Part shown: positions 21,217-39,372 of the stretch, one piece after another
Position numbering within the stretch: position 1 is the stretch's first letter
How the letters are laid out: the number at the start of each line of letters is the position of its first letter
From: Natronorubrum tibetense GA33
GTDB taxonomy: Archaea > Halobacteriota > Halobacteria > Halobacteriales > Natrialbaceae
Assembly (NCBI RefSeq): GCF_000383975.1
Contig: NZ_KB913017.1
Span: 3,324,265 to 3,388,264, forward strand
DNA: 64,000 nt
Direction of reading: 5' to 3'
Notes under the pieces: generated by a model
The model's database searches: none
The model's input: only the letters and a program-made list of their open reading frames with translations
What the model was told of the DNA's origin: nothing
Program-made: the position numbers and the translations under genes

Positions 21217-23337
21217 ATGAACGACGAGACACTGACTTCGTCCCCGAGGTGTTTGTATTATCTCGTCTCGTCTACCGATTCAGTCATTTCCCAAAGTAAA
21301 ACAGTGACTGATCGGCTTGACGAGATACCCGGTATCCAGGCAGAGGTGACGATCACGGACCTGATTTCTGACTCGCCATATGACTCGGTTCTTCGATCTG
21401 CAAAGGTGGGGTCTCGATACGGGAAGCCATTACTCGATCTCTATCTTGATGAGATTCGAACACGGCTGGAACGTGTCGATGAGGCCGCCCTAGCAGATGA
21501 GTTAGAGGCGCAGTTCAGTAGGAATGGAGCTGATCCGTATCAAGCCGGACTCACGGCTGATGTGTTGACTATTGGAATCGACGTCAAGTCGAAGCTTGAA
21601 CAGACGATTGAGACGCCGGAGCAGCTTTCGTTTAACAGTGATGACCTTGCGGCAGCTGCTGGCTTCGCCGCTGAGCAAGAGAATATCCAATCAAACGAAT
21701 GTTGTGGTGCAGTCCTCGTCCAAGTCAACGAACCGCTATCGGAACTGGTTGATCGTCATTCTACGGGCGGGTTATCCAATGTTGTACAGCAGCTTTTGTT
21801 GGCAGGTCTTGATGTTTACTTTGTTGGGTCGCGTGGAGGGTCAGATGAACTTGAGATCATCCGTAACCAGTTTCGACGTATTGGGTCTTTTTCAGTAGAA
21901 GAAGAGACACAAGTTGAGTTTGACACCTCAGAGGGAACGAAGTCGTTTGTGGAACAATGGTATGAAAGTCTGTCATTCGATGTAGCAGACGGGCGTGTCA
22001 GAGAGTCAGTAATCCGTCCGGCAAGTGTCGTAGCTTACGATCTACCAGAGCGAAAAGCGCGTCGTCATTTCTTTAGAGCGATCGTTGATGGCCTACAAAT
22101 CGCATACGCAGAGCAAAAGTCCGATGCAGAGGAGTTCGCTCAGCTATGGTCGGATCGGATTACGCCTCACCCAGAGTATGATCAATACCGGTCTCAGCGG
22201 AGCGATTTCCCAATCGTCACACTCGCACGTGAAGATGGTCGGCAACGCGAGTTCCGGTTTACATACCGGGGTCCAAACACGAAACCGCATATCGATGGTG
22301 TTCCAGTTCGGTCAGAGGAGATTGAGGAAGCCTTTATTGATCTCCTTGAACGGTACTTGGACGCCTCTGTAGTAGATGATGAACAGTGGAACGGTCTTCT
22401 AGATGGTATCCGGACAGGCATTGGGGAACAACTTGACTTGGATGCTGAATCTCTTGCGGAAAATGCTCTCCTGCGACGAGCTCGGATTCGGACTCAGATT
22501 TCTCCAGCTCTAAGTCCCGTCCAACACTCGAAACAGAACATCCGATCCTTGGAAGAAGAGAAGAACGCAGAGTGGTACCGTGATCACTGGCGGACAATTC
22601 TCTCTGATTACAAAATCACGACGACAACCGGCACAAACATAATCAAGAAGAAACAAGAACTGACCACCGAACTTAATCCGGAATCAACAGCTGACACGGC
22701 GCTCTATTACAAACTTCAACGGGATATCGAAAACGCGTGGGAGTACTACTGCTCGAATTTGAAAGAACAAATTCGAGTCAGTTTACCGGATGAACTCGCT
22801 GTCGATATTGAGCAACAAGAGAAGGATGCTCGAACGGATATTCGCGTTGCCGTGCATCCACCTGATGCAGGCAACGTAACTACGACCGTATCGATTTACC
22901 TGCCGTTTAGCGATGTCCGGGTTGATGAAGAGCGAGTGACGCGAGCTACCGTTCCGACTGTCGTTGCGCGAATATTAGAAATGTTTGAGGGGGTTCTTTA
23001 CTCCCGAGCCGATGGAGATGAGATTGGCGCTGAAGAGTTACTACTGGAGATAATCCGGCTCTATTGTAACGTAGCAGAGGTGGAAAAGGGAGATTTAGTC
23101 TACTTCGAAGAGATCGTCACATTTGCACAATCGTTACCAGACATTGCTGAGCGATTCCAAGAACCGAATCAAGATATTGAGGAAAGCATGTACCAGAAAC
23201 TCGGTAGCAGGCAGGTAATGGATTCGCTCCGTGAGGCTCACGTCCGGTTCCACCGCAAGGGCAGTGACGACAGACGAAGTGTCAAAGTTAGAGGTGACCA
23301 ATACATTGCGATGGAATTACGTGACGGGGCACCATAA
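21217..23337 (+). CDS. Unknown 706-aa protein, first gene of the ATPase-helicase-nuclease cluster
   Basis: No domain is recognised. Residues 1-110 are a mixed alpha/beta region. The middle (about 330-375) contains FPIVTLAREDGRQREFRFTY, suggesting a beta-sheet domain. Residues 440-560 look helical and charged. The C-terminal 60 residues (from about YFEEIVTFAQSLPDIAERF to KVRGDQYIAMEL) look like a winged helix. No P-loop, nuclease or membrane motif was found. The next gene starts 9 bases after its stop. Position at the head of the set suggests a system-specific component (sensor or scaffold), but this is inference. Confidence 0.7.
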   Translation: MNDETLTSSPRCLYYLVSSTDSVISQSKTVTDRLDEIPGIQAEVTITDLISDSPYDSVLRSAKVGSRYGKPLLDLYLDEIRTRLERVDEAALADELEAQFSRNGADPYQAGLTADVLTIGIDVKSKLEQTIETPEQLSFNSDDLAAAAGFAAEQENIQSNECCGAVLVQVNEPLSELVDRHSTGGLSNVVQQLLLAGLDVYFVGSRGGSDELEIIRNQFRRIGSFSVEEETQVEFDTSEGTKSFVEQWYESLSFDVADGRVRESVIRPASVVAYDLPERKARRHFFRAIVDGLQIAYAEQKSDAEEFAQLWSDRITPHPEYDQYRSQRSDFPIVTLAREDGRQREFRFTYRGPNTKPHIDGVPVRSEEIEEAFIDLLERYLDASVVDDEQWNGLLDGIRTGIGEQLDLDAESLAENALLRRARIRTQISPALSPVQHSKQNIRSLEEEKNAEWYRDHWRTILSDYKITTTTGTNIIKKKQELTTELNPESTADTALYYKLQRDIENAWEYYCSNLKEQIRVSLPDELAVDIEQQEKDARTDIRVAVHPPDAGNVTTTVSIYLPFSDVRVDEERVTRATVPTVVARILEMFEGVLYSRADGDEIGAEELLLEIIRLYCNVAEVEKGDLVYFEEIVTFAQSLPDIAERFQEPNQDIEESMYQKLGSRQVMDSLREAHVRFHRKGSDDRRSVKVRGDQYIAMELRDGAP

Positions 23338-23346
23338 TTTCAGAAT

Positions 23347-24516
23347 GTGTCACAATCTCCATTCTCCATCGATCCGGATACCGCGATACCGATACTAACG
23401 AGGTTACAACAAGGGGTTCCTCCTGAACCGGAGAGTATCCAGTACATCCGTGTTGGACGAAAAGACGAAGAACGCCGTCTCTGCGATAAGCCCATAGAGG
23501 GGCTACAGAGTCTTAAACGGGGCAGCGGTCAAATCTACTTCGTTCTCGGTGACTTCGGGTACGGGAAGTCGTTTTTCATCAACCTTCTTTCACAGCGGGC
23601 TACTGACATGAATATGGTGCGGTCCCGTTTCGACCTTCAGGATATCCAAGATATCGCTGATAAGACAGATTTGTATACTAATATCGTTCGAAATATACGG
23701 TATCCAGATGAGCGAGGAGAGGGACTGGTACCGCTTTTCCGGAGATTCTGTGAAGAAGTAGACCGTAGTGATTTTGACCGTATTGCGACCGAGCGCGGAT
23801 TCTATGGGCACCCGATCTATAATATGCTCTCGAATTTGCTTGAGGCATGGGAGAAAGGACAACTGCGCGTTGAAAAAGATGAGGTGACACTTGATCAAAG
23901 TCAGGTACTCACTGCTGTTACTAGCTATCTTCAAGGTGAGGATGTTCCTTTAGAGGGACTTCACGCTATCGGCAAGGTTGGGTTTGATCATATTTCGAAG
24001 GAAGACGAGTACGAATACCTCCAGCATATTCGCTCTCTGGTATTAGAACTGGGATATGATGGGGTAGTAGTGCTGTTAGACGAAGCCGCAGAGCAACTTG
24101 AATGGTCCCCTGATTCTGGGACGACCCAACGGTTGATCGATCTTTACAATAAGTGCTTTCAGCAAGGCAAATTTGATCATATGATGTTCGTCTTTGTTGG
24201 TAACCAGGATAAGTGGGACACGCTAATTGATGAGACAGGACATCAAGCTCTCTCTGACCGATATCGAGCGAAAAAGGTAGTTCTCGGAGAACTTACTGAA
24301 GAGGACTATGTGGACCTAGTTGAACGTGTCGCCCATCTTGTTACGGTCGCCCATGACCGTTCGGTCTCGCTGACGGAGACGGAAGCACGCGAAATTGTAA
24401 CTAATGCTGCAAGTGAGTACGGGGGCGTTAGCGAACTTAGCCCCCGCCGATTACTCCTTTTCCCAAGGCGAAAAGAGAACGATACAACTCTTGTTGATCT
24501 AATCAGTGACAAGTAG
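23347..24516 (+). CDS. BrxD-like (DUF2791) ATPase
   Basis: This 389-residue P-loop ATPase has GTG as the start, 9 bases after the previous stop. The N-terminus has the family's pattern ILTRLQQGVPPEPESIQYIR, then VGRKDEERRL. Walker A is GDFGYGKSFF (about 70-79) and Walker B is VVVLLDEAAEQLEW (about 239-252). The C-terminal segment GGVSELSPRRLLLF fits the lid/winged region. These are hallmarks of the BREX system ATP-binding (BrxC/BrxD) family, STAND/AAA-like ATPases associated with defence operons. No PglZ, PglX or BrxL is present, so this is not a BREX locus. It probably forms a complex with the zinc-ribbon ATPase downstream. Confidence 0.75.
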   Translation: MSQSPFSIDPDTAIPILTRLQQGVPPEPESIQYIRVGRKDEERRLCDKPIEGLQSLKRGSGQIYFVLGDFGYGKSFFINLLSQRATDMNMVRSRFDLQDIQDIADKTDLYTNIVRNIRYPDERGEGLVPLFRRFCEEVDRSDFDRIATERGFYGHPIYNMLSNLLEAWEKGQLRVEKDEVTLDQSQVLTAVTSYLQGEDVPLEGLHAIGKVGFDHISKEDEYEYLQHIRSLVLELGYDGVVVLLDEAAEQLEWSPDSGTTQRLIDLYNKCFQQGKFDHMMFVFVGNQDKWDTLIDETGHQALSDRYRAKKVVLGELTEEDYVDLVERVAHLVTVAHDRSVSLTETEAREIVTNAASEYGGVSELSPRRLLLFPRRKENDTTLVDLISDK

Positions 24517-24565
24517 GGCTATCAGCCGACAGGTTTTTCTATTTTAGCTGAGGTTTCAGAGTATA

Positions 24566-26080
24566 ATGGCGGTACATGATTGCTCTACTTGTGACCGGTC
24601 AATAGTCAGTACTGCGATTTACTGTCCCCACTGTCTCATAATGCGGATTGAGTCCGATACTTCTTGGTTTCCCGTGACGACAGAAGGGAGTGATAACTCA
24701 TTGCTTCAGCATGAACTAGTCCCCGAGCATCGGATTCTACCCGAAAAACGTACAAAACAACTGCTCAAGGAATATGATATTGAACGTACAGACTTACCAC
24801 GGATTAAGGATACAGACCCTGCGATTGAACATCTTACTTGCGGACCGGGTGATGTAATTGAAGTCATCAGGGATAGTCGAACAACAGATACTGCGAAGAA
24901 CTATCGATTAGTCACCGGTAACAGTGGGGCCTTGAACTCTGGGGGAACATCACACGAGGAATGGCGTAATCCTGCTGATACAGCTGATGACCTTTATACA
25001 GCTACTGAAGAGCTCACAGAAGACAAAGCACTCCACATTTTGGAGAACATCAGAGCACATGTTCCACCAAGTCGTCCAGGAGCGTGTGAAGCGATTGCCG
25101 TCAATAGAGACGACGAGATCACGGACGCAACTACAAGAGTAAGAGAGGGGGCACCATATACGTTCATTCAGGGCGAACTCGGCTATGGAAAGTCGTTCTT
25201 TCTCCAGTGGGTCCGCGATCGAATGTTTCCAACAACTGCGATCAGTTTCGTTGACTTGGACGACGAAATTACATTTACGAACGACGCCTTGATTGTCGAA
25301 GCGTTCTGGAAGAATCTTGAGACTCCCCGTTCAAATGTGAACGACCAGTATGCAAACGGGCTTGACGAAGTCTGGGATACGTTCTTGCGTCAGGTCGCAA
25401 ACCTATGTGCTAACTACTATGAGGGGCAAGGCTACGATCTTCGGAAAGACCGGGTTGCTAGGAGTTTGAGTCAAGCGGTAAGAGATATCCTTCGATCCAA
25501 CGGGGTTGAATCAGAGATCGCAGACCAGCTTTCAAATGTCGCGGGAAGCTACTTCGACACTTCCGTCAAGAGTTTAAGTCAAGTACTTGAAGACGACCTC
25601 CAGATTGATGATCCGATGAACCTCATCTCGCTTATGGCTACACTTGTACATCTCAACGGATATCACGTGCTATTGGCCGTTGACGAACTTGAGAAGTCTG
25701 ATAGGACAGAGGAGCATTTTAAAGCGATTGATAAGTTCATAGAGAGACTGCCTCAGGGGGTCTCTTTATTCGTGACAGGAACACCTGAGCTTGTAACTGG
25801 CGGTCAGGAAGGGAACGGTATGAAAGAGACATATCAATCATTCCACAAACGCACGATCAACAACCGGATCACACTTGAGCAACCATCCAGAGAGGAGTTG
25901 ATAGCAATCGTCAAACGGGTGAACTACTTAGAGACAGAATTAGTCGAGAGCAATGCTGTACGAGAATATTCTGATGCAACTGAAAATTTGGGCGGGGTAG
26001 AGGAAGCAGTTGAGACGTTCCTTTCCGAAACTGCACCTTCTTTCCGCGCTTTCCTGACTCATCTAGAAGAAAATAGTTAG
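24566..26080 (+). CDS. Zinc-ribbon ATPase of the BrxD-like group
   Basis: This is a 504-residue protein. An N-terminal zinc ribbon (C6, C9, C20, C23: CSTC and CPHC) is followed by a linker and an ATPase domain with Walker A GELGYGKSFF (about 203-212) and Walker B HVLLAVDELEKSD (about 369-381). The Walker A context (GYGKSFFLQWVRDRMF) mirrors the upstream ATPase (GYGKSFFINLLSQRA), so the two are paralogues. A sensor-like LFVTGTPELVTGG follows. It starts 49 bases after the previous gene. The zinc ribbon may contact DNA or the helicase encoded further downstream. Confidence 0.75.
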   Translation: MAVHDCSTCDRSIVSTAIYCPHCLIMRIESDTSWFPVTTEGSDNSLLQHELVPEHRILPEKRTKQLLKEYDIERTDLPRIKDTDPAIEHLTCGPGDVIEVIRDSRTTDTAKNYRLVTGNSGALNSGGTSHEEWRNPADTADDLYTATEELTEDKALHILENIRAHVPPSRPGACEAIAVNRDDEITDATTRVREGAPYTFIQGELGYGKSFFLQWVRDRMFPTTAISFVDLDDEITFTNDALIVEAFWKNLETPRSNVNDQYANGLDEVWDTFLRQVANLCANYYEGQGYDLRKDRVARSLSQAVRDILRSNGVESEIADQLSNVAGSYFDTSVKSLSQVLEDDLQIDDPMNLISLMATLVHLNGYHVLLAVDELEKSDRTEEHFKAIDKFIERLPQGVSLFVTGTPELVTGGQEGNGMKETYQSFHKRTINNRITLEQPSREELIAIVKRVNYLETELVESNAVREYSDATENLGGVEEAVETFLSETAPSFRAFLTHLEENS

Positions 26081-26440: not shown

Positions 26441-28843
26441 GTGCGTATCTCCTTTCACCATGCCAACCCCGACGCCGGGAACGAGTCCTTCCTACTCCGG
26501 TTCAACGGGGAAGCCGATGAGACACCATGCATCCTTGTTGACGCAGGTGACGGCGTGGACCTTGATGCGCTCCTTCAGCAGACCGACCAGCTCGCCGCTA
26601 TCTGCCTCACGCATGCTCACCTCGACCACTACGCCGAGCTCACTGCTGCCCATCGTGATGATGCACCTATCGTTACGTCACCAGCAACCGCAGCGGTCCT
26701 TGACGATGTCCTTGACATCGCTGGGGTGGAGTACAATGTCGAGACGACAGATGCCGTCGCCGACGCCATAACGCCAGTTGACGATTGGATCGATGTTGCT
26801 CCCGGGATCGACGTCCATCCAGTTCCCGCAGGACATATCCCAGGTGCGGTTGGCTTCCTCGTACGTGCGACCGATGGCGACCAAAGCCACCATATCTTGG
26901 CGACCGGCGACTTCACACGCCGCCGTGTTGGGGGGTTCCCCGGGTTCGATGCTGAGGGATTCGTCGATATTGACGTTCTCTTCTTAACGGCGGCTACTTA
27001 CGATGACTTCGAGAGGGGACTCACTGGTGCGCTCGGGACGGCGCTTGAACATGCTCACGGTGGGGCACCGACCCTTGTTACGACCAGCGGAATCGTCGGC
27101 GTCCATATCGCCTACCTACTATCGTCACTCGCCGCTGAGTACGACCTTCGGGTGCCGATACGGGTTGTCGGCCACGTTGCGAAACTCTACGAGGCGCTTG
27201 ACTACGATCGTCCGGGTGTTGAGACGATCCCGCACTTCCAGAACACCGACGAGTGTCTCGAACCGGGGGCAATCGTAATCGCTGGTCCGGAAATTCCGAG
27301 CGAACGGAGCAGTGGCCGGTTGTTCGGTGTCCTCAGGGAGAACCCCAATGCTTGTGTCGTCCAGATTGTTGGATCTGGTGAGGAGCCACTCTCCGAGGCC
27401 ACGTGTACGATCCACGACTACGAACTCAGTAATCATCCCTCGCGCGAGACGCTCATTGATATCCACGACACACTTGACCCAACCCAAACGGTCATCACTC
27501 ATCGTCACGGTGGCGCACAGGGCGCGTTCAACGATCTATCGAGTGTGGTGTGGGGGGCCGGTGATACGGACGAGTACACGCTGTTCGACGGTCGCCGCTG
27601 GAAACTCCCGCCCTGGATGCCTGGGAGGAACGTCTCCCAAACCCATAGCCGAAGCCTCCAGCAGATCGCTGGCGCCGATCTTCTCGCCGAGTTCTCGGTC
27701 CCGGCGCTTGATCGCTCCGCCGAACCTAATCTAGAAGCAGAGGGCCTTGACGAGGATCGGATTGCAACGCTCCTCCACCAGAATCAAGATGGGGGGACGA
27801 GCCTTGACGCCCCAGAGGGGAACAACAAGCAACCAGCTGAACAACCGGATTCGCGGACAGATTCCACGACCATGGCTACGGACAACACCGATTCGACTGG
27901 CAGCAGTGACTCGACTACCGATGCGAAGCCACCAACAGGACTGATACGGACGGCCGGTGCCGATCTTGATGTTGGACTCGATCCCGCCTTACAAGCGGCG
28001 CTCAGTGATGGCTCGCTCGCAACAGAGGATCTTACTGCCGCGCTCACCGCACAGAAGCGTCTCGTTGGACAGGACACCGAAAGTAACGATGAGAACGAGG
28101 AGCGGGACGAGGGCGATTCAGCAACCGCTCCTGAGAACGGTGGGGCCAAGGCAGAAGACACTGACGAAGAGTTCGTCGAATTCAATGGTGAGGACGGAGA
28201 CGGACCTGAGACTGCCTCTGAAGACGGGGCTACAGAAGTCCTCGCCGATGGTGCGGCAGAAGGCGTGTACACGACGGAGGAGCCAACGGACGAAACATCG
28301 TCCACCGAGCCGCCAGAGACAACGAATAGCGAGGTTTCAGAGCCGGATACCAATACGTCGCTACCTCCTGGGTCCGAACTCCATGCGGCGGAAACGAAGG
28401 CGGCAATTGTACTTGATCTGAACCCGGTCGCAGTGACCCTAGCCGAGCGAGCAGTTGAGGAGATGGGCGATGACTCGGACCCAGTTGATGCAGCGATCGT
28501 AGCAGCTGTCGATCAGTATATCGCTGCGCTTCTAGCCGGAGAGGCGTCTGGCTGTAAAGACGAACGGTTTACTGTCAGTTTCGACGGCAGCCGAGCCGTT
28601 GAACGAGCACTCACCACCGTCGTCGATGAACACAAGCAGTTCGAGTCTCCGACAGACTTGGTGACCAACGGGCTTGCATCGCTTCTCGGTAGCGATTCGA
28701 GTGGTGTACGAGAGGTTTCTGGTCTGGGCGTCTATCGCCAACACCTCAATGCGATTGCGGCTAACGAAGCGTACGTGTTCAATGAGGTTGCGGAGATTGT
28801 CGAAGCTGCCATCGCCTGGACAACTGTGACTGTCACCGAGTAA
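26441..28843 (+). CDS. MBL-fold hydrolase with C-terminal RHH-like repeats
   Basis: This is about 800 residues from GTG 26441 (MRISFHHANPDAGNESFLLR). Residues 1-400 are a metallo-beta-lactamase fold with HAHLDH (His58, His60, Asp62, His63), PVPAGHIPGAVGF, TGDFTRR and a late TVITHRHGG, the order seen in RNase J/CPSF-type beta-CASP proteins. These act as nucleases on RNA or DNA. A long Ser/Thr/Asp/Glu-rich disordered region (about 440-630) follows. The last 150 residues carry RHH-like repeats (VDAAIVAAVDQYIAAL, PTDLVTNGLASLLG, NEVAEIVEAAIAW) like those ending the helicase at 734-3583. It has its own promoter but fits the surrounding plus-strand set. Nuclease activity is likely but unproven. Confidence 0.75.
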   Translation: MRISFHHANPDAGNESFLLRFNGEADETPCILVDAGDGVDLDALLQQTDQLAAICLTHAHLDHYAELTAAHRDDAPIVTSPATAAVLDDVLDIAGVEYNVETTDAVADAITPVDDWIDVAPGIDVHPVPAGHIPGAVGFLVRATDGDQSHHILATGDFTRRRVGGFPGFDAEGFVDIDVLFLTAATYDDFERGLTGALGTALEHAHGGAPTLVTTSGIVGVHIAYLLSSLAAEYDLRVPIRVVGHVAKLYEALDYDRPGVETIPHFQNTDECLEPGAIVIAGPEIPSERSSGRLFGVLRENPNACVVQIVGSGEEPLSEATCTIHDYELSNHPSRETLIDIHDTLDPTQTVITHRHGGAQGAFNDLSSVVWGAGDTDEYTLFDGRRWKLPPWMPGRNVSQTHSRSLQQIAGADLLAEFSVPALDRSAEPNLEAEGLDEDRIATLLHQNQDGGTSLDAPEGNNKQPAEQPDSRTDSTTMATDNTDSTGSSDSTTDAKPPTGLIRTAGADLDVGLDPALQAALSDGSLATEDLTAALTAQKRLVGQDTESNDENEERDEGDSATAPENGGAKAEDTDEEFVEFNGEDGDGPETASEDGATEVLADGAAEGVYTTEEPTDETSSTEPPETTNSEVSEPDTNTSLPPGSELHAAETKAAIVLDLNPVAVTLAERAVEEMGDDSDPVDAAIVAAVDQYIAALLAGEASGCKDERFTVSFDGSRAVERALTTVVDEHKQFESPTDLVTNGLASLLGSDSSGVREVSGLGVYRQHLNAIAANEAYVFNEVAEIVEAAIAWTTVTVTE

Positions 28844-29233: not shown

Positions 29234-30949
29234 CTACTCTGCTGCTCCCTCTACCTGCAGCAACTGACCCTCCTCCAACCTCAGAAGACTCGCAGACTTC
29301 TTCACCAGATAATCCTTGAAGTCTCTGACATTCTCAGGTGTCCAATCATCATACTCCTCGACCACACGACGAGTCAAATCAAAATTCGTAGCCGCACGGT
29401 CTTCAGCCACCGATGCTAAGGTACTGTCACTCCCCATGTAGTGAGCCGCCTTCGTTGGGAAGGGCTTCTGCTGAACCGTCTCGTGAACCTCCTGTTCCAA
29501 GGGGATCAAATTACCTAGACTATGTCTCAACTTAGCGGCCTCTTCAGCAGAGAAGTTCTCCCTCCAATACTGCTCGTTCTCCATTGCAGTAGTGAATTTC
29601 TTGGGTAGAATGTGCTCACGGTGCAGTTCCTGGCCAGGCTCAATCTCACTGGTCTTCATATCTGGAGTGAACCGGTACTCGATAGCGAGAAGAAGCGGTC
29701 GATGCCAGCTAGCTTCGTAAACGTCAGAGTCCAGATTGTTCTGCACCTTCTGAGCGATGTTTTTGCTGCTACGATCATCCTCGATGTACTCCCAGACCTC
29801 ATCGAGACTTCCACCGTCCTTAATCAGGCTCAGAAGGTCGTAAGACGGGTTCTTGATTTTTGCGCTGGTGTGGCCTCCAACCCAATAGGAGTAGTACATA
29901 GCGACCAGGGCATCCACCAACCCCTCGTAATCCTCAAACCCTTGCTTCTTTGCTGTGGTGAGCAAGGTCTTCCAGTACTGAGTGTGCTTTAGATTAGAGA
30001 GCATGTACATCTCCCGCGACTGATCATTTTCTACACTCAGGAACTCCTCCGCGTACCTATCGATGTCCCTGGCCAATTCCACGACAGATGTCTCGCCGTG
30101 CAGCGTTGAGTCAAACTCATCCTTCAACTCCTCGTAGATTGACGATTCTGCCCGTGTTTCCTGAATATAGAGTCGGTAGCTGGATAGCAGGTTGTCTAAC
30201 CGACTGTAGTTGTCCTCGAACTTGCTGGAGAGTTTCTTCCAGGACTCCGTCACCGTCTTTCGCTGTTCATCGTTCGAGGTGAGGCTGAGAAGGTAGCTCT
30301 TGGTCAGGTCGGAGACAGTGAGGTCCTTTCCTCGCGTATTCGCCGTCTGAAATAGCCGGATAGCATACGAAAGATCCGATGTCTCAATCTGTATGATCTC
30401 AACCTCTAGTTCGACAAAGTCGTAGAAGTTCCTCAACTCCTCTGGATCCTCAAACTTGTCCTCCAAGGCGTTCTTGGTGTACTTTGCTGCGTCCGTGTAG
30501 TTGTTGTCTTCACTCAGGTCGACACCGGATAGGATCGTGGTCTCAAACTCGTCCTGATGCTTCTCACCTGTCCGTAGCCTGTACGTTGAGTCGTCACCTG
30601 AAGAGTCCTCCAACCGGCGTTCTATTGTACCCATTTGAGACGCCAACTCTTCACTGAAAAAGTCACGAAGGACAGCATAGAAGATTATCAACGTAGTGAT
30701 ACGCTGCTGACCGTCTAAGATATCCAGTCTTTTCTCACCGTTGTCAACCAGAATCACCGTCCCCAAAAAGTACGAATCATCACCATTCTTCTCCGCGTTC
30801 CAGGCCTCGAAAAGGTCATCCCAGAGCTGGTCGATATGTCTTTTCTCCCAGCTGTACGGTCGCTGGTACTCCGGAATCTTGTACAGGGTCTTCCTGCCCT
30901 CGAAAAGATCACAAATATCCGCTGGTTCTGCGTCGAACTGGCTAGCCAT
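29234..30949 (-). CDS. gmrSD: GmrSD-type DUF262-DUF1524 restriction protein
   Basis: This is about 571 residues from ATG 30949 (MASQFDAEPADICDLFEG); an in-frame ATG 8 codons upstream is possible. The N-terminal DUF262 domain is ParB-like, with YKIPEYQRPYSWE (about 22-35), DILDGQQRITTL (about 76-87) and FQTANTRGKDLTVSDL. The C-terminal DUF1524 is HNH-like, with the HREHILPKK motif followed by LRHSLGNLIPLE. GmrSD enzymes cut phage DNA with glucosylated hydroxymethylcytosine or other modified bases. Single-chain S-D fusions are common. The gene is on the opposite strand to its neighbours and is bordered by transposase scars at 28.9 and 31.0-31.6 kb, so it seems to have been inserted into the plus-strand cluster. 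Confidence 0.85.
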   Translation of the reverse strand: MASQFDAEPADICDLFEGRKTLYKIPEYQRPYSWEKRHIDQLWDDLFEAWNAEKNGDDSYFLGTVILVDNGEKRLDILDGQQRITTLIIFYAVLRDFFSEELASQMGTIERRLEDSSGDDSTYRLRTGEKHQDEFETTILSGVDLSEDNNYTDAAKYTKNALEDKFEDPEELRNFYDFVELEVEIIQIETSDLSYAIRLFQTANTRGKDLTVSDLTKSYLLSLTSNDEQRKTVTESWKKLSSKFEDNYSRLDNLLSSYRLYIQETRAESSIYEELKDEFDSTLHGETSVVELARDIDRYAEEFLSVENDQSREMYMLSNLKHTQYWKTLLTTAKKQGFEDYEGLVDALVAMYYSYWVGGHTSAKIKNPSYDLLSLIKDGGSLDEVWEYIEDDRSSKNIAQKVQNNLDSDVYEASWHRPLLLAIEYRFTPDMKTSEIEPGQELHREHILPKKFTTAMENEQYWRENFSAEEAAKLRHSLGNLIPLEQEVHETVQQKPFPTKAAHYMGSDSTLASVAEDRAATNFDLTRRVVEEYDDWTPENVRDFKDYLVKKSASLLRLEEGQLLQVEGAAE

Positions 30950-31030
30950 GAGAAACAGTCGAAGTAACTTCAAATAAAATCTATGCTATAGGTGTCATTT
31001 GGCCTCTCGGAAATAATTTCGAACCTTCTG

Positions 31031-31590: not shown

Positions 31591-31638
31591 CGATCAAATT
31601 ACAAAAGTTCACAAGCAGCAATCGACAAGAACCGGCAG

Positions 31639-34179
31639 ATGAAGAATCGACCCGACATTGGGGAGACAGTCGAATGGTTACGGGGTCGAGGCTATTACGG
31701 GGGACAGATCACGCATCAACTGGTTGAGAAGGGACAAGCTGCGGAGACGGCTGATATCGACGTTTCTGACCCGGTATCGGTCGCACTTCGACAGTCCGGA
31801 ATCTCGAGTCTGTATTCTCACCAGGTTGAGGCAATTGGGGCTGTCCAGTCTGGTGAAAACGTGGTTGTCGCAACGCCAACGGCTTCTGGCAAAACCCTCA
31901 CATACGTCGTTCCCGGTCTCGAGCGAGCGATCGAAAACACAGGGAAGACACTCTATATCGCACCGTACCGCGCACTCATCAATGATCAAGCGGACACGTT
32001 CGAAGCGTTCGATACTGAGTTAGGGCTTGGTGCTTCGATCGATATAGGTGTTCAAACAGGAGAAACATCGAGAACGGTTCGGCAGGAAATCAAGGGTTCT
32101 CAGCCGGATGTACTTCTGACGACGATCGATCAACTCCATCTTAGTCTCCTCCCATATGCCCACGGGAAGAATCATTGGCGGTGGTTATTCCAGCAGTTGG
32201 ATACCGTAGTCATCGACGAGGTCCACATGTATCGTGGGGTCTTCGGAAGTCATGCCTCGTTGATTTTTCGACGGCTCAATCGGTTGTGTGACCATTATGA
32301 TGCGTCTCCACAGTACATCTGTTGTTCGGCAACGATCGGGAATCCCGTCGAGCATGCAGCAACTGTCACTGGCCAGGACGAAACCACGTTCAGACTTGTT
32401 GATGACGATGGGAGTGCATCGGGCGATCGCCACTGGCTGTTCTGGAACCCACCGCTCAAGCAAGATGGCGACGAAGACCGATCGATTACGGATCCGGCTG
32501 TCGACGCAGATGGTACTGTCCGTGCTGGGCATGATGAACATCCACCTGAGCAGATCGCAGCCGCTATTGATACCGCTCCGAGTTCGACAATCGACTCACA
32601 AGCGGAGCCAGACGGGTCATCGGAGCCCGCCGATGAGATTACCCTCCCATCCCATCAGGAGGTGGTCGGTGGGGAACGGCAATCGAATCACGTCGAATCC
32701 GTGCGGCTGTTCTGCGATCTCGTGACCAGGGGCTATCAAACGCTCGTTTTCACTGCTGCTAGACAGGGGACGGAACAGTATGTTGACTGGTCGGACAAAA
32801 TGCTGCGTGACCGAGGCCAGCATGACCTCGCGGACAGCGTTCACGCCTATCATGCAGCACTCAATACGGACCGCCGCCTCCAACTTGAAGAGGAGCTTCG
32901 CAGCGGCGATGCTCGTGGCGTTTGGAGTACGAACGCGCTTGAGCTCGGGATTGATATCGGGACTCTCGACGTCGTCTTGCTCGATGGCTATCCGGGAACG
33001 TCGATGAGTACATTCCAACGAGCCGGGCGAGCTGGGCGTGGTGAGGACGCCTGCCTCGTTGTTCTCGTCGGGGCAGACGATCCACTGGACCAGTATACGA
33101 TCCGAGAGCCCGAGGAATTGTTTGAGAGTGGTGCTGAACAGGCTGCTGTCAACCCGACTAATGATGCGATTCGCCCGGATCACGTTGTTTGTGCGGCAAG
33201 TGACCATTTCTTGTCGCCAGATGACGAGGACTATTTCGGCCCCGATCTGCCTAGTGTTGTCACGGACGCGGAAGCCAATGACCGCCTTCGCCGTGTAGAG
33301 AGTGGCGATCGGATTCAATGGCGTGCCACGGATTCAGATGTTCAGTGGAATACAAATATTCGAGCGATCGATGACCGCGAAATCGATCTCATTGACCGGA
33401 ACCGGGACGAGCAGTTGGCATCGCTTGAGTTTGGAGCTGCGGTGCGGGATGCACATCCGGACGCGATTTATCGCCATCAGAAACAGACCTATCGAGTTGT
33501 GGAGTTAGATCTTGAATCCGATCAGGCGTTGCTCGAAACGACGTCTACAGCAGAGTACACACGTGCTCTTCGAGAGAAGTCCGTGACTATTGAGGATACG
33601 TACCGCCAGTCATCCGTTGAGACGCATGAAATGGACGCTCAAGCGACGTTAGGAAAACTCACAGTAGAGGATACGGTCACGGGATATTTGCTGTACAGCA
33701 ACCCCAGTGACGACACTCCACGGGAGTGTGAGTTTGAAGAGCCGTTGGAGTCACGAGCTATCGAAACTACAGGAGTGTTCATCACCGTCCCCGGCGACGT
33801 TGAGGCGATGATTCTCGACCAGGTAGAGTCACAAGATGAGTATCTCAGTGCGCTCCACGCGATCGAACATGCCCTGATATCGCTGTTTCCCATGGAGGTG
33901 CTATGTGATCGAGGCGATATCGGCGGCCTTTCAACTGTCAGTCATGGGCAAACGACTAATGGGACCATCTTCATTCACGATGGCCATCCCGGTGGAGCCG
34001 GGCTGACGCGACAGGCATTCAATCAACTTGACGTACTGTTAGAAAAGACGTTCAAACTACTTCAGGACTGTAGCTGCCGGGATGGGTGCCCATCCTGTAT
34101 TCATTCACCCCACTGCGGGAATGCGAATCGGAGTCTTAACAAACAGCTTGCACTGCAGTTGTTGTCGGAGTTGAAATAG
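31639..34179 (+). CDS. Hrq1/MrfA-like SF2 helicase with DUF1998
   Basis: This is an 846-residue helicase. Walker A is ATPTASGKT (about 78-86), motif II is DEVH (about 193-196), and motif VI is STFQRAGRAGRGE. It has a C-terminal DUF1998-type domain with the five-Cys zinc motif CSCRDGCPSCIHSPHCGN (C811, C813, C817, C820, C826). This tail is diagnostic of Hrq1 (yeast, archaea) and MrfA/YprA (Bacillus), 3'-5' helicases linked to mitomycin C and crosslink repair. DUF1998 helicases also recur in DISARM and Druantia defence systems. An insert between the two RecA lobes (about 275-345) is acidic and low-complexity. It is transcribed toward YhaO/YhaN after a 356-base gap. Confidence 0.85.
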   Translation: MKNRPDIGETVEWLRGRGYYGGQITHQLVEKGQAAETADIDVSDPVSVALRQSGISSLYSHQVEAIGAVQSGENVVVATPTASGKTLTYVVPGLERAIENTGKTLYIAPYRALINDQADTFEAFDTELGLGASIDIGVQTGETSRTVRQEIKGSQPDVLLTTIDQLHLSLLPYAHGKNHWRWLFQQLDTVVIDEVHMYRGVFGSHASLIFRRLNRLCDHYDASPQYICCSATIGNPVEHAATVTGQDETTFRLVDDDGSASGDRHWLFWNPPLKQDGDEDRSITDPAVDADGTVRAGHDEHPPEQIAAAIDTAPSSTIDSQAEPDGSSEPADEITLPSHQEVVGGERQSNHVESVRLFCDLVTRGYQTLVFTAARQGTEQYVDWSDKMLRDRGQHDLADSVHAYHAALNTDRRLQLEEELRSGDARGVWSTNALELGIDIGTLDVVLLDGYPGTSMSTFQRAGRAGRGEDACLVVLVGADDPLDQYTIREPEELFESGAEQAAVNPTNDAIRPDHVVCAASDHFLSPDDEDYFGPDLPSVVTDAEANDRLRRVESGDRIQWRATDSDVQWNTNIRAIDDREIDLIDRNRDEQLASLEFGAAVRDAHPDAIYRHQKQTYRVVELDLESDQALLETTSTAEYTRALREKSVTIEDTYRQSSVETHEMDAQATLGKLTVEDTVTGYLLYSNPSDDTPRECEFEEPLESRAIETTGVFITVPGDVEAMILDQVESQDEYLSALHAIEHALISLFPMEVLCDRGDIGGLSTVSHGQTTNGTIFIHDGHPGGAGLTRQAFNQLDVLLEKTFKLLQDCSCRDGCPSCIHSPHCGNANRSLNKQLALQLLSELK

Positions 34180-34221
34180 GTGAACTACTTTACTCGCTCG
34201 CTTACTCGTTCGCGGCTGACA

Positions 34222-34499: not shown

Positions 34500-34535
34500 C
34501 GGATTTATATCAATAGCTTCGTAGTTGCTTATCAG
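34500..34535 (+). promoter_or_regulatory. Promoter of the YhaO-YhaN pair
   Basis: GGATTTATATC with the core TTTATAT at 34504-34510 lies 26-32 bases before ATG 34536, with no ribosome-binding site. This suggests a leaderless transcript and that the nuclease pair can be expressed apart from the helicase. The rest of 34326-34500 shows nothing. Confidence 0.5.
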
Positions 34536-35822
34536 ATGGCATCAATAGAGGTTCTGTGTACAGCGGATATTCATATCGGACGCCGTCCGAGCCGACTTCC
34601 CGACAGATTCGATCCGGCCGACTTTTCTCCCCGGACGATCTGGGCTGATATCGCGGAAGCAGCTGTTACTCGGGGAGTGGACGCGGTCGTCGTTGCGGGT
34701 GACCTCGTTGACCGCGAAAACAAGTACGCCGAGGCGTTCGGTGCCGTTGAGTCCGTGGCGGCCACGCTCGCGGAGGCTGGTATTCCCCTCGTCGCTGTCG
34801 CTGGTAACCACGACGCCGGCGCTCTTCCGGACTTGGCCGAGGCAATCGATAATCTTCAGTTGCTTGGCCGGAACGGTTCGTGGGAGCGAACAGGCCTCAC
34901 CGATGACGACGGAGATCCGTGCCTCCACGTCGACGGGTGGTCATTCCCGAGCCGGTACCACCACGAGAGTCCCTTAGCTACCTACGATTTGGCTAACGAG
35001 GGCATTCCACGTCTTGGCGTCGTCCACGCAGACGTGAGTGATGAGGACCGGTACGCACCGGTTGCTGTGGATGACTTGGCGACAAGTGGGCACGTAGCAT
35101 GGGTGCTTGGCCACCTCCACGTCCCGGGCCTACGCCACGACAACCCACCAGTCCTCTATCCGGGATCACTACAGCCGCTGGACCCAAGCGAGACCGGCGG
35201 TCACGGTGCGTGGTTGGTTTCGGTCGAGACTGATGGTACAGTTGACACGGAGCCGCTCGGGTCGGCAACACTGCAGTACAGGGAGGCTGTTGTCTCAACG
35301 ACCTCCGAACAAGGGTTCCATGATGTCGTCGACACTATACACGAGCGGTTACGTGAGACGGTCACGGAGTGTAGTCCTGAAACCGAACTCTTAGCCGTCG
35401 ATGTGACGATCGAGGGTCGAACAGACGCACATACCGACTTACGCGGCCGAAGCGGGGAACTCGAACAGATCGAGCTTACGGACGGCGGGACGACAGTACA
35501 GGTCGCCGACGTGACTGTCGACGCGAAACCCCCGATCGATCTCACTGATCGCGCCGGCGATGATGATCCGATCGGGTACTTGGCCGGGCTTTTGCGCGCA
35601 CTCGAGGGTGACGAACCGCTCGAACCCTATCAGGATGTCATTGAGACTGCGCACATGAATATCCGGGAGACGCACGACTCAAATGCCTATCGGGAACTCA
35701 AGAGCCATGATGAGACGTATTCCCGCCCGACAGAAGCCGAAACGAAAGACGTACTCCGCCAACAGGCTCGGCAACTCATCGACGCATTCGTTGAGCAACA
35801 GGGGGTGACGGCGGATGAGTGA
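34536..35822 (+). CDS. YhaO/SbcD/Mre11-like DNA exonuclease
   Basis: This 428-residue calcineurin-like phosphoesterase has all metal-binding motifs intact: DIHIG (about 10-14), VVVAGDLVDRE, VAGNHDAG and GHLHVPG. The order matches Mre11/SbcD/YhaO nucleases that use two Mn ions to degrade DNA ends. The C-terminal 150 residues should contact the partner ATPase. The stop overlaps the start of the YhaN-like gene by 8 bases, so the subunits are translationally coupled. It contrasts with the degenerate relative at 5572. It probably supplies the nuclease activity of the cluster. Confidence 0.85.
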   Translation: MASIEVLCTADIHIGRRPSRLPDRFDPADFSPRTIWADIAEAAVTRGVDAVVVAGDLVDRENKYAEAFGAVESVAATLAEAGIPLVAVAGNHDAGALPDLAEAIDNLQLLGRNGSWERTGLTDDDGDPCLHVDGWSFPSRYHHESPLATYDLANEGIPRLGVVHADVSDEDRYAPVAVDDLATSGHVAWVLGHLHVPGLRHDNPPVLYPGSLQPLDPSETGGHGAWLVSVETDGTVDTEPLGSATLQYREAVVSTTSEQGFHDVVDTIHERLRETVTECSPETELLAVDVTIEGRTDAHTDLRGRSGELEQIELTDGGTTVQVADVTVDAKPPIDLTDRAGDDDPIGYLAGLLRALEGDEPLEPYQDVIETAHMNIRETHDSNAYRELKSHDETYSRPTEAETKDVLRQQARQLIDAFVEQQGVTADE

Positions 35823-38800
35823 GCCAGTCCCAACTGACCGCGACCAGTCCGACACCGACGGTGACACAGCGGATGAGCGGGAGACGCCCGTTGCTATTAA
35901 CGCCGTTACGCTCGAGCGTGCACCGGGGTTCGAGACGGCTGGTTTCACAGTTGAGGACTTTTCCCCAGGTGTCAATGTTGTGTACGGTGCGAATGCGGCT
36001 GGCAAAACGACGCTTTCGGAGGCGATCCGATGGTCGCTATGGCCCGAGGAGGCACCGTCCTCGGCGACTGTTCGGGCTGAACTCACCTACGATGGGGAGT
36101 CGCGGCGGATCGAACTGCATGGTGGCGTTGGTGAGCATGTCCGCGACGGCGCACCAGCTGATCCGATCCCGGTGCCGTCGCTGAATGGTGGCCGCCGGTA
36201 TGCGCTCTCGCTGCACGACATGCTGCAGGAGGAAACGGACGATGGCGAGTTCGCAAACGTCATCCAGCGGGAGTCAACTGGCGGGTTCAATATCGATGCA
36301 GTCCGGGAAGAATTCGATCTCGCTGACGGGGCCAGTCCATCTACACGAGGAATTAGTGCTACACAAGAGGCGGAGACAGCCATCGAACAAGTCGAGAAAC
36401 TGCGACGGGATACACCTGATCTCGAAGCGGAACGGGCACGCCTCGCCCAACTCGAAGAGGACCTTGCCGCTGCTGCCGCCGCAAGAGAGCGAGTCGATCT
36501 GCTTGAGACGGCCATTGAGTACACGAAGGCAGAAGACGACTACGACCAGAAAATCGCGGAGTTAGAGTCATTCCCTGACGAACTGTCGGCGTTCGACGGC
36601 GATGAAGTGGAACAGCTCGACGACCTCGACGAACAGATAGAGAAACAGAAGCGGGAGGAACAGGAAGCGGCCTTGAAACACCGCTCAGCTGCTGAAAAGC
36701 TGGCAGACACGGAACTGCCCGAAGATGGCGTCGACGATGAGGTGCTCCAAGTCCTCCGAGGGCATCGGGACGACCTCGCTGACGCTGAAGACGATTGTGA
36801 CCGTTTCGAACGAGAAGTAGCCGATGCAAAAGCTGAGCGCAACGAGATTCAGGCGAAGATTCCGCTCAATCTCGACAATGAGACACTCCGCGAGGTCAAC
36901 ACGGGCGACCTTGCTGAACTCCGATCGTTCGTCAGCAAGGTAGCTGAAGTCGAGGGGAAAAAGCAGGTCGAAGCTGCCATCGACGAGTGGTTCAGCGATG
37001 ACTCGGATAATCGGTCGGATCGTGAAACCCTCGAAAGCGGGCGGAATGCACTTGAGAACTGGCTCGCAGCCCCACCAGAACACGCCACTAACAACCAGCG
37101 TGGTCAAGGACTCGTCGCAGCGGCCGTCACGGCCGGGGTTCTCACAGCACTCTCAGGGCTCGTGCTTGCGTTCACGGTCAATCCGGCTGGCGGCGTGCTG
37201 ACGCTCCTTGGTCTTGGGCTCGCTGGATACGCGGCGTTCACCGCGAGGAGTGATGATGGTAGTACGGACACTGCTAGGACGACTCATGCAGAAACGTTCC
37301 GGCAGACCGGGCTAGAGGAGCCGGCAACTTGGGAAACCGATGCCGTCAGAGACCGGTTAACCGACCTTCGCAAGCGACTGAGTGGTATCGAAGTCGGCGA
37401 GCAGGAGATACAGAAGCGGGACGAACTCCACGCACAGTTTGACATCGATGATCTCAAGGATGAACTGAGGACGGCCCGAGAGCGACTTCGGGAGCGGTTC
37501 GACACTGAGGTCGACGACGACATTGAGCTGGCGGTGACAGTCGAACGTGTCGAGCGCTGGCAGGCTGCCGACGAGACCGTCGCCGGGAAACAGGCGGCAT
37601 TGCAGGAAGCTAAAGACCAAGTCGAGATGTACCGGAAGCGGTTCTGCGCGACGATCGAAACCTACACGACTGACACATACACCTACGCGGTCGAGACGAG
37701 TGCCGAGGCTACGGCCGCGGTCGACAGTCTCGAACAGCGGCAGCGCGACTACGAGGATGCGACGCAGCGCCTCGTAGAGGTCGAGGGGAGTGTCGCTACG
37801 GCCCGTAAAGAACTCGAACGATACAGATCGGAACGGGAATTACTGTTCACCGAGCGTGACTTGGAGCCCGGTGACAGCGATCACCTCTCGGCGCTGTGTG
37901 ATCAACACTCGGAGTACGAAGCTACCGTTGACGCAAAGCACACAACCGAGACCACTCTTGAGAACCGGCGTGAGGACCTTCGTGACCACGAGATCTACGA
38001 CGAGACCATCGAAGAGCGAGACAGAGAGGACTTGGAAAAAGAATTAACGGAGAAACAGAAGGTTGCAGACCAACACGACGATCTCTTACAGGAGAAAACA
38101 ACCCTGGGGAAAGAAATCGAGGACGCGAAAGCGTCGACGGAGATCGCTGATGCTGTCCAAGAACGGGACGAAGCCTTGGCGGCCCTCGAAGACACGCTCG
38201 AAGCGGACGTCGCTGACGCGGTGACGGATACGCTCCTTGAGTTCGTCGAAGAAGAGACGATTAGCAGCAACCAGGAGCCGGTCTTTCAGCGGGCAGACGA
38301 CCTGCTGCGTCGGATTACTGACGGACAGTTCGAACTGAGACTCGATGACGGTACGTTCAGGGCGTACGATACGGGTGAACAGCGACGGGTTGACCTGAAC
38401 GACTTATCGAGTGGGACGCGAGTGCAGGTTCTGTTAGCGGTCCGGGTCGCTTTCGTCGAACACAGAGAGCAGGAGACCGCACCCCCGTTGTTGCTTGACG
38501 AGACGCTGGCACCGTTCGACGACCAACGGGCCGAGACAGTCCTTGAGACCGTGATCGATTTGGCCCGAGAGGGGCGACAGGTGTTCTACTTCACGGCCCG
38601 GCATGACGAACGCACGCGTTGGGAGAACCGCCTCGAGGAGTCAGATATTGAGTACAGTCTCCAGCAACTGACGGCAGGCGACGGGCACGACCCGATCGCG
38701 GAGCCGCCGACACTCGAAACACTTGGTGCAATCGACGTGCCAGCTCCGGACGGCAACGATCATCGGACGTACCGTGAACGCCTGGGCGTCCCGACGTTTG

Positions 38801-39372
38801 ATCCACGACAAGGAGCTGCCGCAGCTCCGCTCTGGTACGTGACTGAGGACCCGGAGCAACTATACCGACTCCGTGCTGCTGGCATCGAGCGCTGGGGACA
38901 TCTCCGATCGTTGTTGGAAGTTGGTGCCGTTGATGGTCTCCTATCGGAACCGTCCCGAGAACAGGTCCGACAGCACGGTGTGGCACTTGAAGCGTTCGTT
39001 GAGGCGTATACTGTTGGGCGCGGGAAGGCGGTTGACCGCGATGTGTTAGAAGCCAGCGGTGCTGTCAGCGATAATTTCATCGACGAGGTGAGTTCCTTGG
39101 CGGACCGTGTCGACGGCGATCCAGAAGAGATTCTTGATCGGTTGCCTGATGTCCCTCACTTCTATCAGGATAAAATCGAGGAACTCCGAGAATACCTCCG
39201 TGAAGAGGACTACCTTGATCCGCGCCCGACGCGGCCGGACGAACAGATCCGGTCAGCGGTGGTCGATACCTATTGTCAGCACGGACTCGAACCAACCACA
39301 GCAGCAACGGCCGCAGACAGACTCCTTGATCGGATTTCAGCAACCCCTGGTTCGGGCGAAGAAACGGGCTGA
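35815..39372 (+). CDS. YhaN/Rad50/SbcC-like SMC ATPase
   Basis: This is a 1185-residue protein. Walker A is GANAAGKTT (58-66). Long Glu/Arg-rich coiled coils run over about 170-420 and 480-800. A hydrophobic stretch lies at about 430-478 (VAAAVTAGVLTALSGLVLAF, then GGVLTLLGLGLAGYAAF), like the membrane segments seen inside the coiled coil of YhaN. The signature is LNDLSSGTRVQVLLA and Walker B is PLLLDETLAPFDD (about 893-905). Unlike Rad50 there is no zinc hook. A 200-residue C-terminal extension (about 985-1185) includes HhH-like helices and is unusual. It works with YhaO as a DNA-end-processing complex, perhaps at the membrane. The 3' end abuts a transposase tail, so the last residues may be altered. 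Confidence 0.85.
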   Translation: MSEPVPTDRDQSDTDGDTADERETPVAINAVTLERAPGFETAGFTVEDFSPGVNVVYGANAAGKTTLSEAIRWSLWPEEAPSSATVRAELTYDGESRRIELHGGVGEHVRDGAPADPIPVPSLNGGRRYALSLHDMLQEETDDGEFANVIQRESTGGFNIDAVREEFDLADGASPSTRGISATQEAETAIEQVEKLRRDTPDLEAERARLAQLEEDLAAAAAARERVDLLETAIEYTKAEDDYDQKIAELESFPDELSAFDGDEVEQLDDLDEQIEKQKREEQEAALKHRSAAEKLADTELPEDGVDDEVLQVLRGHRDDLADAEDDCDRFEREVADAKAERNEIQAKIPLNLDNETLREVNTGDLAELRSFVSKVAEVEGKKQVEAAIDEWFSDDSDNRSDRETLESGRNALENWLAAPPEHATNNQRGQGLVAAAVTAGVLTALSGLVLAFTVNPAGGVLTLLGLGLAGYAAFTARSDDGSTDTARTTHAETFRQTGLEEPATWETDAVRDRLTDLRKRLSGIEVGEQEIQKRDELHAQFDIDDLKDELRTARERLRERFDTEVDDDIELAVTVERVERWQAADETVAGKQAALQEAKDQVEMYRKRFCATIETYTTDTYTYAVETSAEATAAVDSLEQRQRDYEDATQRLVEVEGSVATARKELERYRSERELLFTERDLEPGDSDHLSALCDQHSEYEATVDAKHTTETTLENRREDLRDHEIYDETIEERDREDLEKELTEKQKVADQHDDLLQEKTTLGKEIEDAKASTEIADAVQERDEALAALEDTLEADVADAVTDTLLEFVEEETISSNQEPVFQRADDLLRRITDGQFELRLDDGTFRAYDTGEQRRVDLNDLSSGTRVQVLLAVRVAFVEHREQETAPPLLLDETLAPFDDQRAETVLETVIDLAREGRQVFYFTARHDERTRWENRLEESDIEYSLQQLTAGDGHDPIAEPPTLETLGAIDVPAPDGNDHRTYRERLGVPTFDPRQGAAAAPLWYVTEDPEQLYRLRAAGIERWGHLRSLLEVGAVDGLLSEPSREQVRQHGVALEAFVEAYTVGRGKAVDRDVLEASGAVSDNFIDEVSSLADRVDGDPEEILDRLPDVPHFYQDKIEELREYLREEDYLDPRPTRPDEQIRSAVVDTYCQHGLEPTTAATAADRLLDRISATPGSGEETG

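What the first reader, a model, noticed from the sequence alone, without database searches (positions are those of the whole stretch)
21217..39372. Candidate undescribed defence system: unknown protein, two BrxD-like ATPases, MBL nuclease, Hrq1/MrfA-like helicase, YhaO-YhaN
Seven plus-strand genes combine (i) an unrecognised 706-aa protein, (ii) two paralogous BREX-type ATPases, one with a zinc ribbon, (iii) an MBL-fold protein with intact HxHxDH, (iv) a DUF1998 helicase with the full five-Cys tail, and (v) an intact Mre11-like nuclease with a YhaN-like SMC ATPase carrying a hydrophobic insert in its coiled coil. BREX needs PglZ and PglX, DISARM a methylase, and Dnd has dnd genes; none is here. 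The architecture suggests ATPase-gated recognition followed by unwinding and end resection, possibly at the membrane.
Basis: partly seen in the sequence, partly recalled or inferred. Interest (0 to 1): 0.85.

Follow-up and report, generated by a model that had tools for sequence, protein, structure and literature searches.

The report
Immunity ATPases carrying an RNA-polymerase subunit
Part of this salt-loving archaeon's defence island is a rare, apparently undescribed three-gene unit in which an ATPase related to known anti-virus ATPases has captured a piece of the cell's own RNA polymerase, next to a gene for a nucleic-acid-cutting enzyme, which suggests (but does not show) an immune system that works at the transcription machine.

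Summary
P1-P2-P3 (21217-26080: unknown 706-aa protein and two ATPases) is a real conserved unit: same genes and order in two Halorubrum species and, much diverged, in an archaeon of another class. In all three haloarchaea a beta-CASP metallo-beta-lactamase gene (P4, 26441-28843) lies directly beside it on the same strand. The helicase, GmrSD and Mre11/YhaN-like pair are separate modules that occur elsewhere without P1-P3.

P2 and P3 are homologues of the Shango/BREX-2 ATPases SngB/BrxD; SngA and SngC are absent. It is the best-conserved part of P3 and keeps 31-33 of 37 near-invariant RpoH positions.

Best reading: a Shango/BREX-related ATPase system, in haloarchaea probably docked on RNA polymerase, with the CPSF73/aCPSF1-type nuclease as likely but exchangeable effector. 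Docking and antiviral activity are inferred, not tested. I found no description of this arrangement in the databases and papers searched.

The parts
21217..23337 (+). P1: 706-aa protein without a known family; first gene of the conserved unit
   Evidence: Homologues in H. alkaliphilum and H. laminariae (41% identity) and G527 (about 20%), always just before P2
23347..24516 (+). P2: SngB/BrxD-like AAA+ ATPase, 389 aa
   Evidence: PF10923 E=8e-29; hhalign vs SngB E=3.5e-21; Walker A GDFGYGKS, Walker B VLLDE; 65-66% identical in Halorubrum, 38% in G527
24566..26080 (+). P3: zinc ribbon + RNA-polymerase subunit H domain + SngB/BrxD-like ATPase, 504 aa
   Evidence: PF01191 E=1.8e-23 and PF10923 E=2e-11; Walker A GELGYGKS; hhalign vs SngB E=3e-8
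24701..24913 (+). RpoH/Rpo5 domain inside P3 (residues 46-116)
26441..28843 (+).
   Evidence: hhalign vs haloarchaeal beta-CASP proteins E=1.6e-17; Foldseek; next to P1-P3 in 3 of 3 haloarchaeal loci
29234..30973 (-). GmrSD/HEC-06-like restriction protein, separate module
   Evidence: GmrSD_N E=1.4e-37; HEC-06 E=4e-53
31639..34179 (+). P5: MrfA/Hrq1-type helicase with MZB domain, separate module
   Evidence: TIGR03817 E=2e-170, below that family's cut-off, and MZB E=9e-23; close relatives in six loci without P1-P3
34536..35822 (+). P6: Mre11/YhaO-like phosphoesterase, separate module with P7
   Evidence: Metallophos E=7e-11; paired with P7 in eight other loci
35815..39372 (+). P7: Rad50/YhaN-like ATPase with hydrophobic insert, separate module with P6
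   Evidence: AAA_23 E=1.2e-8; 8-bp overlap with P6 and hydrophobic stretch

Best explanation
The finding spans several neighbouring defence modules. The novel one is P1-P2-P3, a conserved unit of one large unknown protein and two different SngB/BrxD-like AAA+ ATPases, in haloarchaea accompanied by a beta-CASP nuclease (P4). By homology with Shango and type-2 BREX, P2 and P3 probably form a mixed ATPase assembly with P1 that recognises invading DNA or its activity and licenses an effector. In the haloarchaeal lineage P3 carries a complete RNA-polymerase subunit H (Rpo5) domain. The most likely role of that domain is to seat the ATPase complex on RNA polymerase through the contacts subunit H normally makes, so that the system acts where invader genes are transcribed. 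The most likely effector is P4, whose relatives (aCPSF1/FttA, INTS11, CPSF73) cut nascent RNA at the polymerase. Shown: gene content and order, homology, domain identity, conservation of the RpoH domain. Inferred: complex formation and defence role (likely, from homology and island context), polymerase docking (about 50%), P4 as effector cutting nascent RNA (about 35%). The stated confidence is for the unit, its kind and its separation from P5-P7, not for the docking mechanism.
For: Unit: P1-P2-P3 in the same order with 6-9 bp between P1 and P2 in the window, H. alkaliphilum, H. laminariae and G527 of another class; P1 and full-length P3 found in the same 2 of 391 sampled class genomes. Kind: P2 vs SngB hhalign E=3.5e-21, P3 vs SngB E=3e-8. 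RpoH: PF01191 E=1.8e-23, PDB Rpo5 E=1.2e-14; 31-33 of 37 near-invariant positions kept but only 12 of 38 variable ones; 68-69% identical between window and Halorubrum against 51% for the ATPase; fused copies form one group, support 100/99; haloarchaeal signature RDSRTTD. Nuclease: beta-CASP by hhalign and Foldseek; beside the unit in 3/3 haloarchaeal loci although the window and Halorubrum copies belong to different MBL clades (50% identical to each other, 65-99% within clades). Separation. Island: SHOS-like, PbeA-like, pAgo and HEC-06 homologues around it. Literature: RpoH binds A'' (PMC3906176); FttA works at the RNA exit channel (PMC11616081); a beta-CASP protein, Cas14, is the nuclease of type VII CRISPR (PMC10910872).
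Against: No experiment. Only four loci are known, two of them in close relatives. G527 lacks the RpoH domain and its P3 frame is interrupted by a TAA after the zinc-ribbon part, so the polymerase link is not needed for the core. P4 is widespread without P1-P3: 96-99% identical MBLs in G103 and G015 have none nearby, so it may be an independent gene. The P3-P4 gap is 360 bp, not a tight operon. In the FttA structure the nuclease contacts the stalk, Spt5 and zinc-binding domains, not subunit H (PMC11616081). P1 has no fold assignment.
Confidence: 0.72

Rival explanations
1. Sensor or decoy: the RpoH domain of P3 does not join RNA polymerase but imitates subunit H, as bait for virus proteins that attack or hijack the polymerase; binding of such a protein triggers the P1-P2-P3 ATPase complex.
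For: A captured host domain with its surface kept and variable residues changed fits a decoy as well as a docking part; archaeal virus RNA-polymerase inhibitors are known (PMC8448823). P1-P3 without RpoH exists (G527), so RpoH looks like an added input module.
Against: The known archaeal virus inhibitor RIP binds inside the DNA channel (PMC8448823); no virus factor that binds subunit H is known to me. Core-facing near-invariant residues are kept as much as a working subunit would need.
Confidence: 0.25
2. One reading: all seven genes form one system in which the ATPases gate recognition, P5 unwinds, P4 cuts and P6-P7 resect ends, possibly at the membrane.
For: Same strand; P5 is 356 bp before P6; other MZB helicases precede P6-P7-type pairs in three loci; Mre11-Rad50-NurA-HerA genes lie by the unit in H. 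alkaliphilum and by haloarchaeal Shango.
Against: No close P5, P6 or P7 homologue next to P1-P3 in either Halorubrum; P5, P6-P7 and P4 each occur without P1-P3; a divergent GmrSD gene and 2.8 kb separate P4 from P5.
Confidence: 0.08
3. P4 is an unrelated, independent defence gene; P1-P2-P3 works alone and P4 lies beside it only because both collect in defence islands.
For: P4 relatives in 54 of 194 genomes in many contexts; near-identical P4 without P1-P3 in G103 and G015; no P4 visible on the short G527 contig.
Against: Beside P1-P3 on the same strand in 3 of 3 haloarchaeal loci, from two different P4 clades and on either side.
Confidence: 0.4
4. P1-P2-P3 is not defensive but a chromosome or plasmid maintenance or transcription-regulation unit (ORC/Cdc6-like ATPases bound to RNA polymerase).
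For: BrxD-type ATPases belong to the ORC-Cdc6 group (PMC12839542), which includes replication initiators; no antiviral test exists.
Against: Closest ATPases are Shango SngB; rare and patchy distribution; neighbours are defence genes in the window and in Halorubrum.
Confidence: 0.12

Closest known systems
Shango (SngA TerB protein, SngB ATPase, SngC Lhr-like helicase)
   Same: P2 and P3 are homologues of SngB; small operon with a large protein gene directly before the ATPase gene; haloarchaeal Shango also sits next to Mre11-SMC-NurA genes
   Different: No TerB protein (P1 vs SngA hhalign prob 0.1), no SngC orthologue in the unit, two ATPases rather than one, RpoH domain, beta-CASP nuclease beside it
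BREX type 2 BrxD ATPase
   Same: Same ATPase family PF10923, proposed helicase loader (PMC12839542)
   Different: No PglZ or PglX recognised among the window genes scanned; P2 and P3 score 37 and 24 bits against NCBIfam's 350-bit BrxD cut-off
Archaeal RNA polymerase subunit H / Rpo5
   Same: P3 residues 46-116 cover the domain, with haloarchaeal signature residues
   Different: Extra copy besides the normal gene, fused between zinc ribbon and ATPase, on a long separate branch
aCPSF1/FttA, INTS11/CPSF73 and RNase J beta-CASP nucleases; Cas14 of type VII CRISPR
   Same: P4 aligns along MBL and beta-CASP domains; a beta-CASP protein is a known defence effector (PMC10910872)
   Different: Starts directly with the MBL domain, has a long acidic C-terminal half, and forms its own family common in haloarchaea
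YhaO-YhaN / Mre11-Rad50 pairs
   Same: P6-P7 overlapping pair, phosphoesterase motifs, AAA_23/AAA_27 ATPase, hydrophobic insert
   Different: Not part of the P1-P3 unit; a haloarchaeal family of its own

Membership tests
Shango | SngB-type ATP-binding protein | tested here: met
   PADLOC SngB E=5e-23 for P2; hhalign E=3.5e-21 for P2 and 3e-8 for P3
Shango | TerB-domain protein SngA | tested here: not met
   P1 has no TerB domain; P1 vs SngA profiles prob 0.1, twice, with shallow profiles
Shango | SngC helicase in the same operon | tested here: not met
   No SngC-type gene linked to P1-P3 in Halorubrum; P5 is 25% identical to SngC over the helicase core and of the MZB type
BREX | PglZ phosphatase and PglX/BrxX methylase | tested here: not met
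   No such hit among the window genes scanned
DISARM | DrmA/DrmB plus a Drm methylase | tested here: not met
   Only helicase-core similarity of P5 to DrmA; no DrmB or methylase hit
Pbe / Dnd | pbeABCD or dndFGH with phosphorothioation genes | tested here: not met
   P7 vs PbeC only E=5e-4; a PbeA-like helicase lies at 734-3583, outside the unit; no Dnd hits among genes scanned
RNA polymerase subunit H (Rpo5) | complete Rpb5_C domain above the curated cut-off | tested here: met
   PF01191 82.5 bits against 23.5, profile positions 3-73 of 73
RNA polymerase subunit H (Rpo5) | assembles into RNA polymerase | not testable with these tools
   31-33 of 37 near-invariant positions kept: compatible, not proof
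beta-CASP nucleases | MBL plus beta-CASP domain in one chain | tested here: met
   hhalign prob 98.9, E=1.6e-17 over 328 columns; Foldseek E down to 8e-8 with a low-confidence model
beta-CASP nucleases | nuclease activity on RNA or DNA | not testable with these tools
   HxHxDH and downstream His/Asp residues conserved in nine family members
YhaO-YhaN | adjacent Mre11-like and SMC-like genes | tested here: met
   8-bp overlap and pairing in eight other loci

The most novel reading that the evidence does not exclude
Transcription-coupled immunity: an AAA+ defence complex that joins the host RNA polymerase through a captured copy of subunit H and uses a CPSF73/INTS11-like beta-CASP nuclease to cut nascent invader transcripts, an Integrator-like immune system in archaea.
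Probability: 0.25. Interest if true: 0.92.

Novelty: new variant of a known kind. Interest (0 to 1): 0.7.

Why it matters
It adds an apparently undescribed relative of Shango/BREX-2 ATPase systems, conserved across two archaeal classes. In haloarchaea an RNA-polymerase subunit has been built into the defence ATPase. If that domain docks, archaeal immunity would have a way to read or block invader transcription at the polymerase itself, which can be tested directly by pulling down P3. It also identifies a beta-CASP nuclease family present in about a quarter of the haloarchaeal genomes sampled, often in defence islands. And it corrects the seven-gene model, so that the right genes are tested.

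Tried and rejected
AlphaFold models of P1 and P4 were poor (pLDDT about 40), with only three sequences in each alignment; P1's model was not searched, P4's gave a consistent beta-CASP signal but no usable geometry. P1 against TerB/SngA: no relation found. P1's weak Pfam matches (WbqC, FadA) are below cut-off and not shared by its homologues. P1 not found in plasmids or phages; viral-contig scans for P1 and P2 found nothing. The single genome-contig scan used exact peptide patterns, so distant loci may be missed. No further members near G527 in 58 genomes of its class. G015's second P3 match was not a second RpoH. Considered and rejected: one seven-gene system; membership in Shango, BREX, DISARM, Pbe or Dnd.
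Full report
What is in the sequence. The window lies in a 4.9-Mb haloarchaeal genome (G000, contig 1, 3324265-3388264). Pfam gives: P1 nothing; P2 BrxC_BrxD; P3 BrxC_BrxD plus Rpb5_C; P4 metallo-beta-lactamase; 29234-30973 (minus) GmrSD; P5 DEAD/Helicase_C/MZB; P6 calcineurin-like phosphoesterase; P7 AAA_23. The surroundings are defence genes: a PbeA-like helicase, a SHOS/PSYR-like pair, pAgo with a PLD protein, and an AddAB-like helicase-nuclease set.

P3 residues 46-116 are a complete RNA-polymerase subunit H (Rpo5) domain: PF01191 E=1.8e-23, NCBIfam PRK09570 E=2.4e-26, above its curated cut-off, and PDB archaeal Rpo5 chains to E=1.2e-14. It sits between a zinc ribbon (Cys6, 9, 20, 23) and the ATPase. 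The genome also has its ordinary RpoH. Across 391 class genomes full-length P3 occurs only in the window genome and G260; the others match through their ordinary RpoH. The fused copies form one group with 100/99 support and share the haloarchaeal signature RDSRTTD. They keep 31-33 of 37 near-invariant haloarchaeal RpoH positions (a thermococcal RpoH keeps 24) but only 12 of 38 variable consensus residues, and the domain is 68-69% identical between window and Halorubrum, against 51% for the ATPase and 41% for the linker. This is what is expected if the domain still uses the RpoH interface; it is not proof. RpoH binds RpoA'' in Pyrococcus and probably touches RpoK in Sulfolobus (PMC3906176).

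The true unit. P1 is rare: 2 of 391 class genomes. Homologous loci are in Halorubrum alkaliphilum (L036, the same contig as G260:C18) and Halorubrum laminariae (L037). In both the order is MBL-P1-P2-P3, P1 and P2 being 8 bp apart (9 bp in the window); in the window the order is P1-P2-P3-MBL. In L037 a reading frame on the other strand, which looks to me like an insertion-sequence transposase (read by eye), lies between P2 and P3. A profile of P1 finds one more locus in G527, a genome of the same phylum but another class: P1 (714 aa), P2 (38% identical over 366 aa) and the P3 ATPase (27%) in the same order. There P3 has an N-terminal cysteine-rich part but no RpoH domain, and a TAA interrupts it. 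So P1-P2-P3 is probably the older core and RpoH a haloarchaeal addition. No further members were found in 58 genomes of G527's class or, beyond the two known, in 52 Halorubrum genomes.

Relation to Shango and BREX. P2 relatives on plasmids are mostly ATP-binding genes next to TerB genes, that is Shango. Profile comparison places P2 (E=3.5e-21) and P3 (E=3e-8) with SngB. P1 is not recognisably SngA, and P5 is not SngC. Shango is defined by a TerB protein, an ATPase and a helicase (PMC10250203); BrxD has been proposed to load or activate its helicase (PMC12839542). This unit shares the ATPase only: it may work like Shango but is not a member.

The nuclease. P4's best NCBIfam match is aCPSF1 (E=2.3e-6). 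Aligning nine P4-family members with haloarchaeal beta-CASP proteins gives hhalign prob 98.9, E=1.6e-17 over 328 columns including the beta-CASP half. Foldseek with a poor model still returns only beta-CASP enzymes or their Integrator partners among its 46 best matches (INTS11, CPSF73, TTHA0252, aCPSF, RNase J). aCPSF1/FttA cuts nascent RNA at the polymerase exit (PMC11616081), and a beta-CASP protein (Cas14) is the effector nuclease of type VII CRISPR (PMC10910872). P4 relatives occur in 54 of 194 genomes, in diverse contexts, without P1-P3 in every other locus examined. The Halorubrum P4 is 96-99% identical to copies without P1-P3 (G103, G015), while the window's belongs to another clade (65-68% to G068, G065, G033, G183). 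So P4 became linked to P1-P3 at least twice, or was swapped: suggestive of function, not decisive.

The other genes. P6-P7 occur as a pair in eight other loci, 80-82% identical and alone in G010; close P5 relatives occur in six loci (85% identical in G024, without the other genes); only one locus (L112) has both within 20 kb, and none has P1-P3. In three loci a different MZB helicase (about 31% to P5), with a 485-aa RNase H-like protein, precedes the P6-P7 pair, so a helicase-YhaO-YhaN link exists but is independent of P1-P3. Resection genes do recur near these ATPases: HerA-NurA-Rad50-Mre11 in H. alkaliphilum and Mre11-SMC-NurA-ATPase after Shango in DL31 and Natrinema zhouii. The two sets are only distantly related (about 25-34% identity), and the first also occurs with MBL but without P1-P3 in G103.

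Mechanism. Shown: gene content, order, homology, domain make-up, conservation of RpoH residues. Likely: P2 and P3 are ORC/Cdc6-like ATPases in one complex with P1, and the unit is defensive. About even odds: P3 docks on RNA polymerase. About one in three: P4 is the effector that cuts nascent transcripts. The decoy reading of the RpoH domain is the main rival. No paper found in the open library describes an RpoH-defence fusion; that library lacks most subscription journals and preprints.

Verdict.

Noticed in passing
window 5572-10166: 1209-aa protein with N-terminal Mre11-like phosphoesterase, HHH and C-terminal phosphoribosyltransferase/ShosT-like domain, followed by a DprA/ShosA-like gene: a SHOS/PSYR-like pair with a fused Mre11 domain
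   Followed up: partly
window 734-3583: Helicase with PbeA similarity (E=5e-26), without other Pbe genes recognised nearby
   Followed up: no
window 48062-59346: Argonaute gene overlapping a PLD-family gene, followed by an AddB-like protein, a PD-(D/E)XK nuclease and a UvrD-nuclease; parts recur in G019, G046, G100, G113
   Followed up: partly
L124, L125, L137: Haloarchaeal Shango loci followed by Mre11-SMC-NurA-ATPase genes; SngA of Natrinema zhouii has an N-terminal TM2 domain
   Followed up: partly
L034:3334-19998: Downstream of P1-P3 in H. alkaliphilum: two TGT-family genes, an HSP90-type ATPase, unknown genes and a helicase; looks like an archaeal 7-deazaguanine DNA modification cluster
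   Followed up: no
L112:7953-17596, L113, L118: 485-aa HHH/RNase H-like protein plus 855-aa MZB helicase just upstream of a YhaO-YhaN-like pair in three genomes, possibly a four-gene unit of its own
   Followed up: partly
L064:6290-8425 and L069:7055-9220: vWA-domain protein gene overlapping the start of a P4-type beta-CASP gene by 4 bp in two genera
   Followed up: no
L122:9118-16111: G117 keeps a P7 C-terminal remnant, then McrBC-like and nuclease genes up to 94% identical to window 39.6-46 kb, so that downstream block moves separately from P1-P6
   Followed up: no
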